From Brachycybe producta (Eukaryota > Arthropoda > Diplopoda > Playtdesmida > Andrognathidae), in assembly GCA_036925085.1 (NCBI GenBank), contig JAUPFP010000165.1:55788-119787 (forward strand): DNA of 64,000 nucleotides, in the 5' to 3' direction. The stretch's first letter is position 1, and each line of letters starts with the position of its first letter. Both the position numbers and the translations under genes were made by a program. This document shows, in pieces, positions 7,769 to 52,312 of the stretch. A model generated the notes under the pieces. It searched no databases. It saw nothing but the letters and a program-made list of their open reading frames with translations, and was not told the origin of the DNA.

Positions 7769-7801
7769 TTATACCTAGTACACACCAGATAATTTAAATT
7801 A

Positions 7802-10800
7802 TCGAGGCACTAAGATTATTGGTAGCAGGGCTGACGTCGCATCCCTGCAAGGAAAATCCCAGCGGTTAAGGCTTTTTGTTAGTGGGTGCATTCCCACAAC
7901 TTCCCCATCAGTGCTACGTTCCTATCTGGAAGAGAATGATGTTGCAGTTTTGGATGTCAAACAAACATCTCGTCCTGGAAGCTATGCTGCATCGTTTTTT
8001 ATCTCGATTGATGGCAAGTCTAAGCCATTGGTTGTGGATGATAAGTTTTGGCCAAAAGACATTTCCATTCGTGAATGGAAGGGTCCTGATCCCCATCCAA
8101 ATGTTACTTGCAACTTGGATGCTTCTAATTTTGCTGGGTCAATCATTCCCTCTGATGCTGGGGGATTCTGGCCTAACAATACTGTCCAAGGGTCAAGCAC
8201 GTCTGAACTGTCGTGCAAATCGGGGCTAAAATGTCTTCTTATAAATGCACGCAGTGTGTATAATAAACTTGACCACCTGCACCACTTTTTGCTGTCACGA
8301 TCTGATGTCAACTGCTTTTGTTTTGTTGAAACATGGCTGTTTGACTCTATACCTGACTCTTTAATTGTACCTGATGGGTTTTCAGTTCTGAGATGTGATA
8401 GGGAATCACGTGGAGGTGGGGTCTGCCTAACATTATCCAGTGGTGTCCAGTACTCAAAAGTGACTTGCTTTAGACAAGGAGGAGAATTACTTTGTGTTGA
8501 TCTTCATAACCATGGTTCTGCCTTACGATTAATTACATGCTATCAAAGCCCCCTTTGTTCTACATCAGAAACTGCAACCAATAGCTTAATAGATAGCTTG
8601 CAGTCAGTTTTAAACTTTCGTGGTCCAACAGTGATTGTTGGTGACTTTAATAGACCACACATTGATTGGCACATATTTCAAGCCAATAATACATTAGATA
8701 TGTCTTTTGCTAATTTTTTGTTTGAAAATGCTTTCTCCCAATTAGTAATGTTTCCAACACGTGGAGACAACACTCTATCTTTAATTTTTTGTGATGTTGA
8801 TAATGTTGTTTGTAATGTCTATGGGGATGAACCTTTTTGTCTGAGTGACAATCCCCCTCATTTAGCTGTCTGCTTTGCTATTCCCGATTTTGGTCCAGTT
8901 GAAGCACACCCTGTACCTAGGCGGATATTAAACAACCATGCCCTAGCACAGATTAAACATCATCTCCATTCAATAATCTGGCCCAAAGCAAACCAATGTT
9001 TTGACATTGAAACAGTCTGGGTAGAATTTCAGTCCATTGTTCTCAGTGCAGTAAATAAATATGCCCCAATTGTTTCTACTAGACGCGTGTCTTATGTTCC
9101 ACGTTGTACTCGTAAGGCATTCAACCATAAATTGATGTGTTGGAGGAACTGGAAGCGTACCAATGACCCCATAGCTCTGACTCTATATAAGCAATCAGTC
9201 TCTTACTATCGTCAAGTAGTTAGAGATAATGCTGCCAGACTTGAAATTAGTGCAGTTAGTAGTCGTGATAATACTACCTTTTTGAAGTTCGTGCGCAAAC
9301 GTCTTTGCAATCACGCAAAAATTCCAAACTTGGTCTTAGAAAGTGGGGTTGTTAGTTCTTCAGAAACAGAACAGGCAGAATTCTTAAATCTTGAATTTGC
9401 TAACTCATACTCACAAAATAACCATATACCAAACGACTGTACTAATCCACTTTATACCGATCTTGGAGCACTTTCTTCCTTTAATGTGCACACCATTTAT
9501 GAATTGCTTAATAATATACGTCCAAATTGCACTTCTGGGCCTGATGGAATTCCTGCCAGGGTATTAAAGCATTGTGCGGCAGAGCTTGCCAGCCCAATTT
9601 GTGATCTATTTAAGTTATCTTTACTATCGGGCAGTTTACCTTCCGACTGGAAATTGGCTATAGTACGTCCTGTCTTTAAAAAAGGTGATCGTACACTGCC
9701 GAAGAATTATAGGCCAATATCGCTCACAAGTATTATATGTAAGCTAATGGAAAGGATAATTGGGGAATATTTATTAAATCATATGAAATCAATGAACTTG
9801 CTTGCCTCAAACCAGTATGGTTTCCTTCTCACTCGTTCTTCAACGATACAACTTCTTGACTGTTTACTAGAAATTGTGGACTGCGTAGATAAAAAGAAGT
9901 CTGCAACCGTGGCTTATCTTGATTTTACATCTGCATTTGACAGAGTTGATCATGGTCTTCTGATGGCCAAGCTTGCTAGATATGGTATAGCAAACCCTGT
10001 CTATGGATGGATACAGGCTTTTCTGACTAACCGCTTCCAGTCAGTTCAAGTGGGATCAACCCTCTCGTGCGTTAGCTCAGTTGGTAGTGGGGTAATTCAG
10101 GGTAGCGTATTGGGACCAATCCTATTTGGTATATTTATTAATGATATAGCACAAAACAATCTCTGTAAGACCCTGCTTTATGCCGATGATGTGAAATGTG
10201 TATCCAGACTGGGCAGATACTAATGGCATGTCTCTTTCAATTGACAAGTGTATGGTGCTGGACTTTAATACTAAAGGGCTGGCATCAAGTCTATCTTGTA
10301 TGGGCAGTGCCATTAAATTGGTTCCTGAAGCCCGAGACCTGGGTGTCTTATTTAATGATAAGTTAAATTTCTCATCACATTGTAACGTAATATGTTCCAA
10401 AGGCCATCAAAGGGTAGGCATACTATTTAAAGTATTGCCCAATAGCCCAATTACAGTATTAGTCATGGCCTTTAAGGCATTTGTAATCCCAATCCTGAGT
10501 TATGCCTCTTCAGTGTGGTCCCCATATCTGATACGAGATATTGATGCAATAGAGGCAGTTCAGCGTAGATTTACTAAACGATTGAAGGGCTTGTCTAATA
10601 TGTCGTATATACAACGATTGCATTCCCTTGGAATAATTACTCTTGAACTCAGACGCCTCCATACTGACTTAGTATTGTTATACAAAATATTGGCTAAGGA
10701 TGTCTTTTTTCCCTTGGAGTGGGAGTCTTTCCTAATATTTTCTCCAACAATCACTAGGTCCCACTCAAAGCGTATTATGTCACCTGTAGCTCGCATTAAT

Positions 10801-11097
10801 TGTAAACAACACTGTTTTTTTAATAGGGTCATCCCTATTTGGAATTCACTCCCACAATATGTAGTGGACTCTTCATCATCAGCTAGCTTTTATGCTAATG
10901 TTAAGACATTGGATCTAGCTTGTTGGTTGCATGGACGGGCTGCAAGAGGAAATTAAAAAAATGTATCGATGATGAAATGATTGTTTTCACCTCTTTGTAT
11001 ATCCCTATGTATTTGTGTTTATTTTATTTTGTCTTATATTGACCAGGGTTAGACGTAAGTGTTGCTGTAATGTACAACCTGTAAAACCCTAATAAAA

Positions 11098-16496: not shown

Positions 16497-17049
16497 TAGA
16501 GGTGGGACGAATCCTAAATTTCCTCGAATCCGAATCCTAAAAGGTTCTCGAATCTTTCGAATCCTTCATATAAGAATCCTATATTATTCATTAAGAAGAA
16601 ACAAATAAATGAAATAGTATTAAATATTAAATTAATTATTAATAAGAAAAAACACACTGTGGAATTCAGGGTCGCCACAAGGTGATCCATCAATTGGTGA
16701 TTCGGATAACCACCGAAATTGCAACAATCGCCGGTTTTTTTTGTTAGTGAACGCTTCTATTGGACGTCAGTTGGAGTTAAAACTAATTTTACAAAAGTTT
16801 TTAACAGTTTTTTTTTAAGGTTATTATTCGAAAGAGACGAAAAAAAGCGCAATGGATCACCTTGTGGCCTGACCCTGATTGAAGCCACACTGTGTTTTAT
16901 TATTATTAATAATTTAATATTTAATATTTTCTTTCATTTATTTGTATCTTCTTAATGAGTAATATAGGATTCTTATATGAAGGATTCGAAAGATTCGCAA
17001 ATCTTTTAGGTGTCGGTTTCGGTTTCGAGAAAATTTAAGATTCGTCCCT
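16497..17049. mobile_element. Two family B hAT-like copies fused head to head
   Basis: 16497-16852 runs in reverse from TAGAGGTGGGACGAATCC to AAAGAGACGAAAAAAAGCGC. At that point the sequence jumps to the CAATGGATCACCTTGTGGCC block and runs forward to a decayed right end near 17049. The result is a foldback structure sharing about 190 bp of inverted sequence. Confidence 0.7.
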
Positions 17050-17746: not shown

Positions 17747-18650
17747 AGCCTCGTTTTCATGGCGATAGCTCTTTCGTGAAAATAGCTGTCATGAAAGTTG
17801 CGATAGTTCACTCTCACGATAAGCAACTGTCTACACGTCTTGAAGTAACGTGATAGTTCTGGCATAACAGTGATGATTGAGAGCACAAAACAGACCATCA
17901 GTTAAGGATTGTGTTTGAAACCACAGTGTTGCCTCTCCCTACAGAAGCCTTATTTCCCTACAAAGAGAATATTTCCCTAGAAGTGGTCACTCGATAACTA
18001 TTAAGCTTCGTTTTCACGATAGTTGCTGTCAGAACAGCAGCAACTATCGTGAGAACTATCATCGTGAAGACCACATGATAGTCACTATCACACTATCTCG
18101 ATTGACTAGATAGTTGATAGTACTGTCGCGACAGTGATTTTAACTATCGTGAATACTATCACTGTGCATACAAAACTGTCGCAATAGTAATTAGTTGTTG
18201 AGTGACCACTTGTAGGGAAATTCCGCTTCTGTAGGGAAGAGGCAACACTCTTGTTGACTCTCAAACACATTTCTGTAAGCCTCGTTTTCCAGGCGATAGT
18301 TCTTTCACGAGAGTAGCTGTCATGAAAGTTGCTATAGTTCGCTCTCACGATAGGAACTGTCTACATGTGTTGAAGTAACCCGTAACCGTGATAGTTCTGT
18401 CACATGACAGTGCATGTCTACTTCACAGATATCATTGAGTCAACAACAGTGTTGCCTCTCTCCATCCAGAAGCCAAATTTCCCTACAAAGTGGATATTTC
18501 CCTACAAGCGGTCACTTAACAACTATTACTATTGCGACAGTGCTATTCAACTATCTAGTCAAACGAGATAATTGTGATAGTACTATCGTAACAGTGTGAT
18601 AGTGACTATCATGTGGTCTACACGATGATAGTTCTTGCGAAAGCGAGGCT
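17747..18650. mobile_element. Large complex palindromic element with AGCCTCGTTTTC ends
   Basis: The left end AGCCTCGTTTTCATGGCGAT and the right end GCGAAAGCGAGGCT are inverted, with TTAA outside the left. Inside, a GTTGCCTCT(C)CCTACAGAAG...TTTCCCTACAA block and a dense set of GATAGT/ACTATC motifs recur in both orientations. This suggests nested or duplicated copies of one foldback family. No coding frame. Confidence 0.6.
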
Positions 18651-19061: not shown

Positions 19062-22029
19062 TCAGAATTCACTTTCAAAGCCAACTTCGGCTTCGAAAAA
19101 TAACTTCTGAATTTCAAATTGCAATTGCGCCGCAACTTTCGCATCTCTCTGATGAAACCTACGTAGCTTAAAAGCAATGGTTGAACCAAACGAGTCGAAT
19201 TCGTCCGATTTTTCTTTACATTCTTCTTTAAAAACCGGATGTTGTTGTTGTTGCTCCTCCTCGAATGTATTAAGTCGACGTTTCTGTACAAAAAAAAACT
19301 TTAATGATTTCATACGTCTTTTCTGTTTGCATTCATTTTCCAAACGCACCTTGGAGAACTTCGAGATCGTCCGCTGTGAAGGACTCACTTTGATGTGACA
19401 CGGTAACAACTGCATTGAATTCCAGGGTTGACTACCGCAATCTCCAACTTCGTTAGAGTCGACATTCGTATATGTCCTTCGGTAGCAAATAAATCAACGT
19501 AATTGAATGAACAAAAGTTTACAGAGTTTTGAGGGCGGGGCGGGACACACATGTCCAGGCCGAGGCAGGGCTAGTGGGCTGCTGAGTGACGGCCGTCACC
19601 AGGTGAAGGAATTGCACCTTTAAATTCGATGCGTCTGTTTTTACAACAGCGTGCCGTGACAGGACCGTGCCCTGGTGCTGCCACCGCCTCCGGGTGGATA
19701 TTGGTCACGTTTATTTTATTTTTTTCCGGTTACGGTTCGCTTTCGGCTTGCAGGCTGTTGTTCGCGTTGACGACGTCAAGAGGTTAATTAAGTACTGAAT
19801 TTTCTTCATTTCTTTATCACTATTTGACACGACCCGAGTCGTACTGTCATGTGAGGCCTAGACGACTGGTTCGAAGCAGGGCCGGAATGCGGACGTCTCC
19901 CGGACAAGTGTGGTTTCCAGATTACCGGAGTGCAGCCGTCTTCCGGGCCCCGGCTCGGACATGTGTGTCCCGACCTTAACTATGAAGCCATACATTTCTC
20001 CTGACGTTGTTTCCGAATAAAACCTCATCGCTTCTTCGTGGCGGAAAAACAGTTTTGGCGCTCCCTCAGGATTACTATTTGTCGGTTTCCTTATCCGTCG
20101 TAAGAATGCCACATACTGGTTGCGAATATTTTTCCACATTACCAATGCATCCTCTCCTGTAAAGCACCGGTTTAAAAACTCAACTCATTAATCGTGCTGT
20201 TGTATTAGTTGTTACGTCACACGCCCATTCCATGCCATTCATATAAGAGAACGAGAAATGAAGAACGTGACGTCACTGCAGATTAAGACTTCGTCGATAT
20301 TATAACTTTGCCGATAAACCAATTGTGATCGTTCAGAAAAAAACAATCGGATACTTTTTATTTTTCTTACATTCGTGAAATTATCGGCATAATCAGGTAA
20401 ATTAAGTTACGCCGATGTTGATTAGAAATACCAGATTCCGATTCAATTAATCGGAGAATCGATTACAAACAAAAACTAAAAGTTGGGTCATTTTTCAAAC
20501 TCACATAAAAAGTTTATTTTAAAAGATTCTCTTTAAGAGGCTACATCGCAAAATTACTTTGAAAAATCTCCACAAAGAGCGCTAGCATCGTTTTTCTATT
20601 GAGCCCATAGACCCGATGTTAAAGAAAAAACGTTAATTTTTAAAATAAATAGTCGCGGTGGCAATATGTTTATTTTTCATACTTAAAGTTGTCCAATTTT
20701 GATGGTTCAAAGTGCAATGTGCACCTCCAATACATGTTCATCTATTGATAGATTGACAAAAAATTGGTAAGTGCGGTTCTATTTTTAAAAACTATTTCAA
20801 AATCGCGAATTTCTAACTCTTATGTTAAACTCCATTGAGTAAGGTCTCGTAACCAAAAAAAACATCCATTAAAATGTTGATCAAAAATACTTAAAAATAA
20901 TTTTAAAAAACCACAATTAAACCACAGTGAAGCCAACACATTGGCTTACGTGCTGATTTTTTTTTCTGGTTTTTTAAAAATTATTTTTAGGTATTTTTAC
21001 GAGCAATTTTAATGGATGGTTTTTTCTTATTTGGCCGTAACTCAATGGAGTTTAACATAAGAGTTAGAAATTCGCGATTTTGAAATAGTTTTTTTTAAAA
21101 ATAGAAAAACACTTACCAATTTTTTGTCATTCTGTCACTAGATCAGCATATATTTAAGGTGCACATTGCACTTTGAAAACTTAATATTGGACAACTTTAA
21201 ATATGAAAAATAAACTTATTGCCGCAGCGACTTTGTATTTTAAAAATTAACGTTTCTTCTTTAACATCGAGTCTATGGGCTTAATAGAAAGACGACGCTA
21301 GCGCTCTTTGTGGAGATTTTTCGAAGTAATTTTGTGATGTGTAGCCTCTTAAGTTTAATTCACTTACCATTCTAGTTTATTACACAATTTCAATTTCGCC
21401 CTAACGTTTGCAGCTCAAGAAACGTTAAATAACCAGATTTGAAAAATCCGCGCTTTTAATAAAAACTAACGCCAACGCCACTTAGCGAGTTTGGAGTTGC
21501 TGAGCAAGCGAGCAATTGCTTTGGCGCCGCGTGACGTCGCCATCATGGCGCGATGACTCACGACTGACTCACAGCTGAGAGGCTGAAATTACACGTTTAT
21601 GGCGTGCATAAGAAATTTCACGCTAGATTTGAGGCTAGAATAAAAATTCTTTCGATTTGCAGCCTCGTAGCCTCAATGCAGGCCGCCTGTACAGCTGCTG
21701 TTTCACCTTATTTCGTGCGCCTTTTGCCGCAGCTTATTTAACAACAACAACAATTGAGGCTAGCGGCTCCTAATCGAAAGGAAAAAAAAAACACTCGAGG
21801 CTTGATTTGAGGCTAGATCTTTTCTCTTTAACTTGCCCGTATCTAAATGAAGCATTGTTGCAATGGCGTTCCATCCATTATCCTTTTTAACGACGTCCTT
21901 GTAATCGTGACGTTTTTTATCGTAGAGAAAAGGACGTTCACGAACCAAATTAATCAAATTCAATTCCAATACATTTTTCGTTATATTCTCACTTTCACGT
22001 TGACATCGACGTAAAACTTGCGAAGTCAT
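19062..22029 (-). CDS. MADF-BESS domain DNA-binding protein, three predicted exons
   Basis: Predicted exons on the minus strand are 22029-21837, 20156-19994 and 19476-19062. They total 771 nt, or 256 codons plus TGA. Exons 1 and 2 together form a complete MADF (Adf-1-like Myb/SANT) domain. It starts LINLVRERPFLYD, passes NGWNAIA and continues WKNIRNQYVAFLRRIRKP in exon 2. Exon 3 ends with a BESS-like motif (FDSFGSTIAFKLRRF...QFEIQKLFFEAEVG), as in Adf-1/Stonewall-type regulators, where BESS mediates protein contacts. Phases match at both junctions: one base then two at intron 1, two bases then one at intron 2. Intron 1 has donor GGGCAAGT and acceptor TTTACAGG, which makes it a GC-AG intron. 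A GT donor five bases away would break the frame. The start ATG at 22029 has A at -3. The gene could be a host regulator or a PIF/Harbinger accessory protein; no transposase lies nearby. The domain call is strong and the exact splice sites are inferred. Confidence 0.75.
19477..19993 (-). other. Intron 2 of the MADF-BESS gene, with an inverted-repeat insert
   Basis: Near its two ends lie GGGACACACATGTCCAGGCC (about 19541) and an inverted counterpart GGCTCGGACATGTGTGTCCC (about 19951). Much of the intron may therefore be a GC-richer MITE. The predicted donor is AAAT|GTATGG and the predicted acceptor CCGAAG|GAC. Confidence 0.45.
20537..21348. mobile_element. Family C palindromic TTAA MITE, complete, in intron 1
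   Basis: Exact TTAA lies on both sides (20533-20536 and 21349-21352). The termini are GAGGCTACATCGCAAAATTA and its near complement ending GATGTGTAGCCTC. The arms, about 300 bp each, are inverted copies carrying AATCTCCACAAAGAGCGCTA, GATGGTTCAAAGTGCAATGT and TTAAACTCCATTGAG. The 12-bp TIR and TTAA target fit a Kolobok or piggyBac derivative. It lies in intron 1 of the MADF-BESS gene and does not touch the predicted splice sites. Confidence 0.88.
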
Positions 22030-22433: not shown

Positions 22434-22833
22434 TAGGGATGGGAATGGGGACATTCGAACCCTCGAAGACCCGCGAATCTTGAAAAATATTCGAGATTCG
22501 AAAACTCGAATCTTCGCGCTTTTTTCGTCTTTCGAATTCTAACTTTTAAAAATAACTGTTAAAAACTTTGGTAAAATTAGTTTTAACTTCATTGACGTCC
22601 AATAGAAGCGTTCACTAACAGAGAAAAACCGGCGATTGTTGCAATTTCGGTGGTTATCCGGATCACAAATGGATCACCTTGTGGCGATCCTGAGTGAAGC
22701 CACACTGTGTTTTTTATTATTAATTATTTTATATTTTATTTCATTTATTTGTATCTTCTTAATGAATAATACAGGATTCTTATATGAAGGATTCGAGAGA
22801 TTCGGGAACCTTTTAGGATTCGGATTCGAGAAG
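22434..22833 (+). mobile_element. Family B hAT-like MITE
   Basis: Begins TAGGGATGGGAATGGGGACA (a short duplication in the terminal GGGATGGG) and follows the family consensus to GGATTCGGATTCGAGAAG. The final 25 bp or so of the right terminus is missing. Confidence 0.8.
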
Positions 22834-40555: not shown

Positions 40556-41044
40556 CCACTTGACCACTCTGGTCGAATTATTAAAATAAAATTGTCCATC
40601 TCAGCCGCACTGACCACAACCATCAACACGACTATAATTACAAGATCTACATTTTCATTGAGACGTCCACACCAAAAAAAAAAATAGAACTTAGGCCACA
40701 CACTGACCACAATTGACCAAAATTGCAAAGTGTCCGCTTACAATACTGACCAGTAGGACTCGGATTTTTATGCAAATAACAAGCATATGTGGCTCAAATG
40801 CCACATTGCAAAACTATGGTGGTATGAGGCTAATCATAGGCAACATCTTTGACTGTAAATGTGGCAAAATCTGTCAATAACCCTTGCAGTTATTAGGTAT
40901 GTGTGAACCTGCCCTTGTTGCAAACCAGCCCCGGTCTCCAGTACTGACCTTTTTATACAGTAAGACCACTATAACCACTCTCCACGCATTGACCACTACA
41001 ATCTCTCATAAAATATTGACCTTTTATACAGTAACGCCACTACA
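40556..41044. other. CTGACCAC-rich stretch leading into the 27-bp array
   Basis: Scattered CTGACCAC(A/T) motifs (about 40612, 40702, 40748, 40942, 40989) at irregular spacing look like decayed outlying units of the array that follows. No gene. Confidence 0.5.
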
Positions 41045-41655
41045 ACCCCTATGTATACACTGACCATTACAACCACTGTGTACACACTGACCACTACAAC
41101 CACTGTGTACACACTGACCATTACAACCACTACGTACACACTGACCACTACAACCACTGTGTACACACTGACCATTACAACCACTACGTACACACTGACC
41201 ACTACGTACACACTGACCACTACAACCACTGTGTACACACTGACCACTACAACCACTGTGTACACACTGACCACTACAACCACTGTGTACACACTGACCA
41301 CTACAACCACCGTGTACACACTGACCACTACAACCACCGTGTACACACTGACCACTACAACCACCGTGTACACACTGACCACTACAACCACCGTGTACAC
41401 ACTGACCACTACAACCACTACGTACATACTGACCACTACAACCACTACGTACATACTGACCACTACAACCACTACGTACATACTGACCACTACAACCACT
41501 GTGTACACACTGACCACTACAACCACTGTGTACACACTGACCACTACAACCACTGTGTACACACTGACCACTACAACCACTGTGTATACACTGACCACTA
41601 CAGCCACTATGTATAGACTGACCACTACTTCTACTCAATACACACTGACCACTAC
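41045..41655 (+). repeat. 27-bp minisatellite, about 22 units
   Basis: Unit TGACCACTACAACCACTGTG + TACACAC, with GTG/TAC and T/C variants. Because 27 is divisible by three and the unit lacks stops, long frames appear on both strands. The repeat is not evidence of a protein. Unit types cluster (three consecutive TACATAC units, four CCGTG units), which suggests unequal exchange. Confidence 0.93.
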
Positions 41656-41660
41656 AAGGT

Positions 41661-41860
41661 CCGTAGACTAACAGGTTGGCTGGTAACCAAGGAAATTTCC
41701 TCTCACCCAAGCAAGCCGTTGCTAAAAATAGGGTTGACGGATGACGTGGGCCACATGGCGACTAATGGTGATTGATACGAGGTTACATCACTCCGCATCC
41801 TTATTCCATCCTTATTCCTGAATTCCTTAGTTACCAGCCAACCTGTTCATCTACAGACGT
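41661..41860. mobile_element. Palindromic element with AACAGGTTGGCTGGTAAC ends
   Basis: CGTAGACTAACAGGTTGGCT...AACCAAGGAAAT pairs with ATTCCTTAGTTACCAGCCAA...CCTGTTCATCTACAGACG. It begins where the 27-bp array ends. Confidence 0.7.
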
Positions 41861-50760: not shown

Positions 50761-51290
50761 CAGTAACATATACATGTTTATATATATAACTTTATACATT
50801 CACTTTGTATAAATAATACATGGTTACACTACTATAATAGAAACCATACTCTTTTGCGGCAAAGTTACGAAGTCCGAAAACATGACAATCCAAATTGTTA
50901 AGTGCAAAAATGCGAACGTAAAAATGAAAAACGGACTGAATTGACTTTACAAAAAGTGCCGACCGAAGTGCCTGGGCCAGTTTTATTCTTTTGCCCCAGA
51001 GAGGGGCAACTATCACGTAGGAATCAGACACAGGTCTAACGAACCAATGTTTTACCCCGGAGTGTCGACATCACCTTACACAGAATTAGATTTTAGGTGA
51101 ATTTCTCCTAAATTAGTATCACCTGTCACGAGCCATGAGAAAATGCAATCTGAAGAGTTTTCTTAATGTAATTTCTAGTACATGTGTTGTGGGCCATGAG
51201 AATCTGTTTCGACTTTTAGGAGACACCTGGGCATCAGGAGAGTGGCGAGGAATGCAAAGTTACTCACACATGTACACTGGGTGTACATTT
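50761..51290. other. No gene called
   Basis: A 79-codon minus-strand frame at 51031-50792 has no recognisable domain or splice support. Nothing else stands out. Confidence 0.4.
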
Positions 51291-52312
51291 GGCTTGCCAC
51301 CTGTGGAGGACAGTCCTCCATTCGGAAGAAATGTCCTCCGGCCAAGACCGTCCACCACGAAGTTTTTATAAAATTTATTGTGTGGAGGACATGTTTGCCT
51401 TTGTGGAGGACATGGTTGCCTTGGTGGAGGACATGGTTGCCTTCGTGGAGGACATGCTTGCCTTTCGTGGAGGACATGCTTGCCTTCGTGGAGGGCATGG
51501 TTGCCTTCGTGGAGGACATGTTTGCCTTCGTGGAGGACATGTTTGCCTTCGTGGAGGACATGTTTGCCTTCGTGGAGGACATGTTTGCCTTCGTGGAGGA
51601 CATGTTTGCCTTCGTGGAGGACATAGTTGCCTTCGTGGAGGACATAGTTGCCTTCGTGGAGGACATGGTTGCCTTCGTGGAGGACATGTTTGCCTTCGTG
51701 GAGGACATGGTTGCCTTCGTGGAGGACATGGTTGCCTTCGTGGAGGACATGCTTGCCTTTCGTGGAGGACATGCTTGCCTTTCGTGGAGGACATGCTTGC
51801 CTTCGTGGAGGACATGGTTGCCTTCGTGGAGGGCATGGTTGCCTTTCGTGGAGGACATGCTTGCCTTCGTGGAGGACATGCTTGCCTTCGTGGAGGACAT
51901 GTTTGCCTTCGTGGAGGACATGCTTGCCTTCGTGGAGGACATGCTTGCCTTCGTGGAGGACATGCTTGCCTTCGTGGAGGACATGCTTGCCTTCGTGGAG
52001 GGCATGGTTGCCTTCGTGCAGGACATGCTTGCCTTCGTGGAGGACATGCTTGCCTTCGTGGAGGACATGCTTGCCTTCGTGGAGGACATGTTTGCCTTCG
52101 TGGAGGACATGTTTGCCTTCGTGGAGGACATAGTTGCCTTCGTGGAGGACATAGTTGCCTTCGTGGAGGACATGCTTGCCTTCGTGGAGGACATGCTTGC
52201 CTTCGTGGAGGACATGCTTGCCTTCGTGGAGGACGGTCCTGGCCGGAGGACATTTCTTCCGAATGGAGGACTGTCCTCCACTAAAGAGGAAAGGTGGCAA
52301 GCCTAGTGGACA
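51291..52312. mobile_element. Foldback element expanded by a 21-bp minisatellite
   Basis: The left end GGCTTGCCACCTGTGGAGGA...CAGTCCTCCATTCGGAAGAA is mirrored by TTCTTCCGAATGGAGGACTG...AAAGGTGGCAAGCC. TGTACATTT stands just before the left end and again at 52313-52321, a possible 9-bp duplication. AAGTTTTTATAAAATTTATT near 51361 matches the centre of the short copy at 12032-12223. Here the array has grown on one arm only. Confidence 0.82.
51376..52230 (+). repeat. 21-bp minisatellite, about 40 units
   Basis: Unit GTGGAGGACATGYTTGCCTTC, with variants at the GTTT/GCTT/GGTT/AGTT position, a few GGGCAT units, and about four 22-bp units with an extra T. The unit length and lack of stops leave five of six frames open for hundreds of codons. 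These frames are artefacts. A run of T,T,A,A variant units occurs twice, which suggests block duplication. Confidence 0.95.

What the first reader, a model, noticed from the sequence alone, without database searches (positions are those of the whole stretch)
19062..22029. A complete MADF-BESS gene hidden across three exons
No single frame covers it, yet three minus-strand frames join into 256 codons with consistent phase at both introns. The MADF domain is split exactly at the first junction and a BESS-like motif closes the protein. It is the only gene in the window with two recognisable domains. It could be a host regulator or a co-opted PIF/Harbinger accessory protein.
Basis: partly seen in the sequence, partly recalled or inferred. 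Interest (0 to 1): 0.72.

Follow-up and report, generated by a model that had tools for sequence, protein, structure and literature searches.

The report
MADF gene, kin to PIF transposons
An insect genome carries an apparently intact DNA-binding-protein gene split across about four exons; it belongs to a large known family whose relatives here often sit beside PIF/Harbinger jumping-gene transposases, so it is a sound gene find of an ordinary kind.

Summary
The gene looks real. On the minus strand, exons 22029-21837 and 20156-19994 join in phase 1 into a full MADF domain (PF10545: 53.6 bits joined, 34.2 and 16.8 for the halves). Of 20 paralogous loci fetched from the same insect genome, 16 have the same phase-1 intron with a GT donor; the window has a GC donor. 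No BESS domain was found. The C-terminus instead matches a module of other MADF genes here; its link to BESS rests on one paralogue and fails a profile comparison. 'Only gene with two domains' is wrong. At least 21 of 79 MADF loci lie within 10 kb of a PIF transposase, all on the opposite strand. The window gene lies on the tree side that holds most tested PIF-linked rows, but has no transposase beside it and no close copy. Its exons stayed open while a transposon in its intron gathered substitutions and indels. Most likely a retained DNA-binding regulator, perhaps of PIF descent.

The parts
21837..22029 (-). Exon 1: start codon at 22029; N-terminus and first half of MADF (21837-21957); ends in phase 1 at a GC donor ACG G|GCAAGTT
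   Evidence: sequence; Pfam 34.2 bits alone; phase-1 GT donor at the aligned place in 16 of 20 fetched paralogous loci
20157..21836 (-). Intron 1 (1680 nt), GC-AG, inside the MADF domain
   Evidence: the acceptor fell below the threshold of the hand-made score
20533..21352 (.). Inverted-repeat (MITE-like) element inside intron 1; outer arms 249 nt, 88% complementary; many copies in the genome
   Evidence: 4823 first-look candidates, 40 scored; private divergence
19994..20156 (-). Exon 2: second half of MADF (20020-20156); ends in phase 2 at donor AAT|GTATGG
   Evidence: Pfam joined 53.6 bits, alone 16.8; phase-2 introns after MADF in L046 and L038 and L040; L047 and L048 not clean
19477..19993 (-). 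Intron 2 (517 nt); 79 nt without the inserted repeat; acceptor weak
19538..19975 (.). Old dispersed repeat with 29-nt, 86% terminal inverted repeats inside intron 2
   Evidence: 113 first-look candidates, 40 scored; main pieces 72-86% identical
19350..19476 (-). Exon 3 (linker), weakest part of the model; may end at 19389 instead
   Evidence: two phase-0 donors of equal score; codon score -4.5 in its frame, +0.4 if it ends at 19389
19284..19349 (-).
   Evidence: donor AAG|GTGCGT or AAA|GTGAGT; acceptor TTTTTTTTGTACAG|A scoring 10.8, the only one over the script's threshold in 19100-19560
19062..19283 (-). Exon 4: C-terminal module (19077-19211) and stop TGA (19064-19062)
   Evidence: 43.0 bits to a profile of five other MADF genes' C-termini, best of 2000 shuffles 9.5;

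Best explanation
This is an intact MADF gene of an insect with no close copy found in its genome, about four exons and 221-234 residues. Its N-terminal Myb/SANT-like MADF domain binds DNA (inferred from the family and from positive charge) and its C-terminal FG...KLR...IQ.LLFE module pairs the protein with itself or a partner (inferred from its place and its recurrence). Its MADF falls on the side of the family tree where most split-MADF genes lie, a set that in this genome includes the accessory (second) genes of PIF/Harbinger transposons. It has no transposase beside it and carries transposons in its introns while its exons stayed open. The simplest account is a DNA-binding regulator kept by the host, possibly descended from a PIF accessory gene or from the same stock. 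Shown by computation: MADF, the shared split, the C-terminal kinship, PIF linkage in the family, no transposase found nearby. Indirect: selection. Inferred: expression, splicing at the GC donor, DNA targets, partner binding, direction of descent.
For: Joined MADF 53.6 bits, above the sum of its halves, 51.0. Phase-1 intron with GT donor in 16 of 20 fetched paralogous loci, 15 of them with a matching acceptor. Phase-2 second intron in L046, L038 and L040. C-terminal module 43.0 bits, best of 2000 shuffles 9.5. 21 of 79 MADF loci within 10 kb of a PF13359 hit, about 0.5% expected, 21 of 21 on opposite strands; a tblastn check of the loci held adds pieces at three more, L002, L026 and L038, also on the opposite strand. 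In a 29-row tree the window is on the 18-row side of a 100/98 branch with 7 of 8 PIF-linked rows, or 8 of 10 after relabelling. No PF13359 hit on contig C165; 10 transposase frames against the window, best E 0.40. Of 23 tblastn matches in the genome, 3 are its own exons and the next has E 4.9e-4. Intron-1 MITE: 34 of 742 private substitutions and 8 indel events; at 5% and 1%, 2 of 2000 simulated neutral copies keep the frame. MADF (residues 25-110) charge +6.0.
Against: No transcript data. The GC donor is rare and may splice poorly. The window's MADF has the longest end branch of 29 rows (2.0) and at most 33% identity to any other, which also fits relaxed constraint; its place on the tree is unresolved and the tree has no outgroup. 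The split is not a clean marker: L044 is split but falls on the other side, and the PIF-linked L056 and L002 too. Linkage does not differ clearly between split and unsplit types (16 of 46 against 4 of 27, p = 0.10). PIF-linked rows are not one group (6 changes; 85 of 500 shuffles as low, 16 of 500 after relabelling, where near-copies help). The selection test leans on indels: with substitutions alone 368 of 2000 copies keep the frame at 6% and 101 at 10%. Exon 3 scores -4.5 bits in its frame and no exon clearly beats all other frames. The charge is +3.0 on the longer segment used in the tree. No AATAAA or ATTAAA in the 1 kb after the stop.
Confidence: 0.7

Rival explanations
1. A host MADF gene that never was part of a PIF element; the PIF elements share an old ancestor with, or took their accessory genes from, the host family.
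For: 58 of 79 MADF loci have no PF13359 hit within 10 kb (at least three of these do have a transposase piece). Ten unlinked rows (nine after relabelling) of 17 share the window's side of the tree. Split and unsplit types do not differ clearly in linkage.
Against: Unlinked L048 pairs with linked L047, and L038, first labelled unlinked, pairs with L032 and proved to hold a transposase piece, so part of the unlinked set may be element remnants.
Confidence: 0.4
2. The lone remnant of a dead PIF/Harbinger element: its accessory gene is open by chance.
For: Tree side shared with PIF-linked genes, longest branch, GC donor where 16 paralogous loci have GT.
Against: All exons are open although the intron MITE has aged (2 of 2000 neutral simulations at 5% and 1%, 57 of 2000 at 3% and 0.5%, 50 of 2000 at 5% and 0.5%). 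No transposase trace. The long inverted repeats flanking the gene (16523-16830 and 22533-22830, 87% alike) belong to a dispersed repeat (2676 first-look candidates, 40 scored), not PIF ends.
Confidence: 0.14
3. The reader's three-exon, 256-residue MADF-BESS protein is right as written.
For: The frame is open through 19476-19062; the MADF score is about the same (51.9 against 53.2 bits).
Against: A donor/acceptor pair brackets 66 or 105 nt in it. No BESS in Pfam or by a local BESS profile (-0.1 bits, 426 of 2000 shuffles do as well).
Confidence: 0.2

Closest known systems
MADF domain proteins of insects (Adf-1 type; PF10545)
   Same: N-terminal MADF domain over the curated cut-off; MADF charge +6.0 over residues 25-110, near the +6.1 given for Stonewall in PMC5982830 (passages read)
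   Different: C-terminus is not Pfam BESS; GC-AG intron inside the domain
PIF/Harbinger accessory (gene 2, Myb/MADF) proteins and their domesticated forms in insects (PMC9710019: abstract and passages read)
   Same: MADF protein, on the same tree side as most tested transposase-linked MADF genes of this genome, C-terminal module shared with several of them
   Different: no transposase neighbour found; no PIF ends found; no orthologues on hand to date a domestication
MADF-BESS family (sixteen proteins according to PMC5982830, passages read)
   Same: MADF at the N-terminus and a short conserved module at the C-terminus; paralogue L040 matches both BESS and the module
   Different: the window's C-terminus does not score as BESS, and profile-profile comparison of module and BESS gives 1.4% probability

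Membership tests
MADF domain family (PF10545) | match over the Pfam gathering score (22 bits) | tested here: met
   53.6 bits (191-residue join) and 54.8 bits (first 118 residues); 53.2 and 51.9 bits (4- and 3-exon models)
MADF-BESS family | C-terminal BESS domain (PF02944) | tested here: not met
   none listed, none among 33 genome hits at E<=10, local BESS profile -0.1 bits
PIF/Harbinger element | DDE_Tnp_4 transposase next to the MADF gene | tested here: not met
   no PF13359 hit on contig C165 among 79 genome hits; 10 transposase frames against the window, best E 0.40
PIF/Harbinger element | terminal inverted repeats and 3-bp target duplication around the genes | tested here: inconclusive
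   the long flanking inverted repeats belong to a dispersed repeat; the ends of this genome's PIF families were not worked out
Domesticated PIF accessory gene | kinship to PIF-linked MADF genes | tested here: inconclusive
   same side of a 100/98 branch as 8 of 10 linked rows, no outgroup, place within it unresolved
Domesticated PIF accessory gene | conserved synteny and purifying selection across species | not testable with these tools
   no relatives of this genome are held; only an indirect selection test was possible

The most novel reading that the evidence does not exclude
A PIF accessory gene taken over by the host whose DNA-binding domain is switched by splicing: the GC donor inside MADF, where 16 of 20 fetched paralogous loci have GT, makes inclusion of the second half regulated, and unspliced transcripts give a half-domain protein.
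Probability: 0.05. Interest if true: 0.45.

Novelty: new member of a known kind. Interest (0 to 1): 0.2.

Why it matters
PIF elements are a documented source of new insect genes (PMC9710019, abstract and passages). This genome shows both sides at once: 79 MADF loci, at least 21 of them beside a transposase. The window gene is one more candidate for a retained accessory protein. It also shows that a gene missed by single-frame reading can be recovered by joining frames and then tested by intron position in paralogues.

Tried and rejected
BESS by Pfam, by whole-genome PF02944 search and by a local profile: rejected for the window. The local profile used 10 segments, of which L032 and L045 are under the Pfam cut-off. 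GT donor at GGCAA|GTTAAAG in exon 1: rejected, since its phase fits no acceptor by 20156 and the paralogues splice elsewhere. Flanking inverted repeat as element ends: rejected. Transposase remnant: none in the window; the first attempt used wrong-strand frames for several queries and was repeated. Rfam: no match at gathering scores. PDB: no match at E<=1. IMG/VR: 5 pattern matches, none confirmed. Codon score: undecided. The splice score uses position weights typed from recall; it missed the acceptors at 20157 and 19477. No structure was predicted: the joined protein is not read letter for letter from the DNA.

Rows dropped: the tree holds the window and 28 paralogous loci out of 78. Of the 20 loci, L030 (a frame-shifted near copy of L031, PIF-linked) and L035 (second half not found, PIF-linked) were left out; the junctions of L033, L043 and L045 are approximate. 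Halves in L055, L058, L059 and L062 were not used. The five sequences of the C-terminal profile were chosen because they matched the window or its nearest kin, so the 43.0 bits are not an independent draw.

Full report
Setting. The window lies in contig C165 (55788-119787) of a 295.3-Mb, 442-contig assembly. Hits to insect odorant receptors (8, PF02949) and to arthropod cuticle proteins (33, PF00379) make it an insect; that these families are insect- and arthropod-typical is recalled. The species is unknown.

The gene. On the minus strand an ATG at 22029 opens exon 1, which encodes the first half of a MADF domain and ends in phase 1 at 21837. Exon 2 (20156-19994) completes the domain. Joined, Pfam MADF scores 53.6 bits; the halves alone score 34.2 and 16.8.

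The first intron is shared. Of the 20 paralogous loci fetched, 16 have a phase-1 GT donor at the aligned place (L029, L031, L032, L034-L042, L044, L046-L048), and 15 of these show a matching acceptor (none found for L035). L030 is a frame-shifted near copy of L031; L033, L043 and L045 show no clean phase-1 donor there. The window has ACG G|GCAAGTT...TTTACAG|GA GAG, a GC-AG intron. Enrichment of GC donors in alternatively spliced genes is stated in the abstract of PMC2490688 (outline with abstract seen).

The second and third introns. The phase-2 donor at 19994 sits where L046 and L038 and L040 have phase-2 introns after MADF; L047 and L048 were not clean there. It lies 18 nt from a 438-nt dispersed repeat; without that repeat intron 2 is 79 nt. 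The acceptor before 19476 is weak. In L040 the corresponding third intron appears to be phase 2, not phase 0, so paralogues do not confirm intron 3. A codon score is positive in the right frame for exons 1 (4.9), 2 (2.7) and 4 (9.2) but other, stop-ridden frames come equal, above or close (4.9, 3.6, 7.2); exon 3 gets -4.5, or +0.4 if it ends at 19389.

The C-terminus. It is not BESS: none listed by Pfam, not among 33 genome hits at E<=10, -0.1 bits to a local BESS profile, where 426 of 2000 shuffles do as well. It matches a profile of five other MADF genes' C-termini (L005, L019, L020, L047, L048) at 43.0 bits, best of 2000 shuffles 9.5; these five were picked through their likeness to the window. 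The profile also finds the module at other MADF loci: clearly at L007 and L008, moderately at L031, L040, L044, L046 and L056, weakly (E 0.0005 to 0.007) at L001, L006, L059 and L062. L040's segment is over the Pfam cut-off for BESS (36 bits) and matches the module (20.4 and 22.7 bits), but the other nine BESS segments score 6.4 bits or less, and profile-profile comparison of module and BESS gives 1.4% probability. None of the five has a Pfam hit over cut-off. So 'BESS-like' is at best a remote resemblance and wrong as a domain call.

PIF/Harbinger. Grouping the 92 MADF hits (150 of 153 candidates scored) gives 79 loci; some split genes may count twice. With 79 PF13359 hits, 21 of 79 loci have one within 10 kb, against about 0.5% expected; all 21 nearest hits are on the opposite strand, 18 downstream of and 3 between the MADF hits. 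The count is a lower bound: among 62 loci held, tblastn finds transposase pieces also at L002, L026 and L038. Split-type loci are linked in 16 of 46 cases (window left out), unsplit in 4 of 27 (p = 0.10), partial hits in 1 of 5. In a tree of 29 MADF domains, midpoint-rooted, the window is on the 18-row side of a branch supported 100/98, with 7 of 8 linked rows, 8 of 10 after relabelling. Of the 18 split paralogues in the tree, 17 are on that side; L044 is not. Within that side the window is unresolved and its branch is the longest. The linked label needs 6 changes either way; 85 of 500 shuffles are as low, 16 of 500 after relabelling. PMC9710019 (abstract and passages read) reports that PIF elements carry a transposase and a MADF gene and that insects have taken over one or both several times.

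Not a live element. No transposase trace in the window and no PF13359 hit on contig C165. The inverted repeats at 16523-16830 and 22533-22830 that flank the gene belong to a dispersed repeat with 2676 first-look candidates, 40 scored. Of 23 tblastn matches of the joined protein in the genome, 3 are its own exons and the next has E 4.9e-4, 49% identity over 39 residues.

Selection. The MITE in intron 1 (20533-21352) has 34 private substitutions in 742 comparable columns and 8 indel events, measured against six copies. Simulated neutral exons keep their frame in 2 of 2000 runs at 5% substitutions and 1% indels, 50 at 5% and 0.5%, 57 at 3% and 0.5%, and, with no indels, 368 at 6% and 101 at 10%. 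This speaks for a gene kept since the insertion but leans on the indel rate and cannot replace orthologues.

Mechanism. By the charge rule of Maheshwari et al. as quoted in PMC5982830 (passages read) positive MADF domains fit DNA binding; this one has +6.0 over residues 25-110, +3.0 over the longer tree segment. I infer a small nuclear DNA-binding regulator whose C-terminal module pairs it with itself or a partner. PMC11893794 (passages read) describes a PIF-derived MADF protein, ADF-1L of M. miiuy, that binds and regulates its own and a neighbouring gene.

Verdict. A correct and careful gene find with one wrong domain call and probably one missed intron; a new member of a known kind.

Noticed in passing
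L032, L042, L045, L038 (C117:221905-223171, C1:13814635-13816027, C5:6819026-6820677, C120:192936-194053): A PIF transposase match lies on the opposite strand between the two halves of the MADF domain, i.e. nested antisense in the MADF intron; in L032 the transposase frame (2493-1555) overlaps both stop-to-stop MADF frames.
   Followed up: partly
window 7779-10956 (+): Non-LTR retrotransposon-like frame with endonuclease and reverse transcriptase domains over cut-off, followed by a second overlapping frame without a Pfam hit over cut-off.
   Followed up: partly
L005, L007, L008, L019, L020, L031, L044, L046-L048, L056; weaker L001, L006, L059, L062: A C-terminal module (FG..VA.KLR...I..LLFE) shared by split and unsplit MADF genes; no Pfam family over cut-off in the five sequences tested.
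   Followed up: partly
C49:969691-972559 and C61:934782-937650: Two MADF hits in the same order and spacing with near-equal scores on two contigs: a recent duplication or two haplotypes of one region in the assembly.
   Followed up: no
window 17919-18643: A nest of inverted repeats (59-nt arms, 88% complementary, and others) just downstream of the gene, likely another fold-back element.
   Followed up: no
window 51175-52306 and 40996-41761: Long repetitive tracts open in several frames on both strands; they do not look like genes.
   Followed up: no
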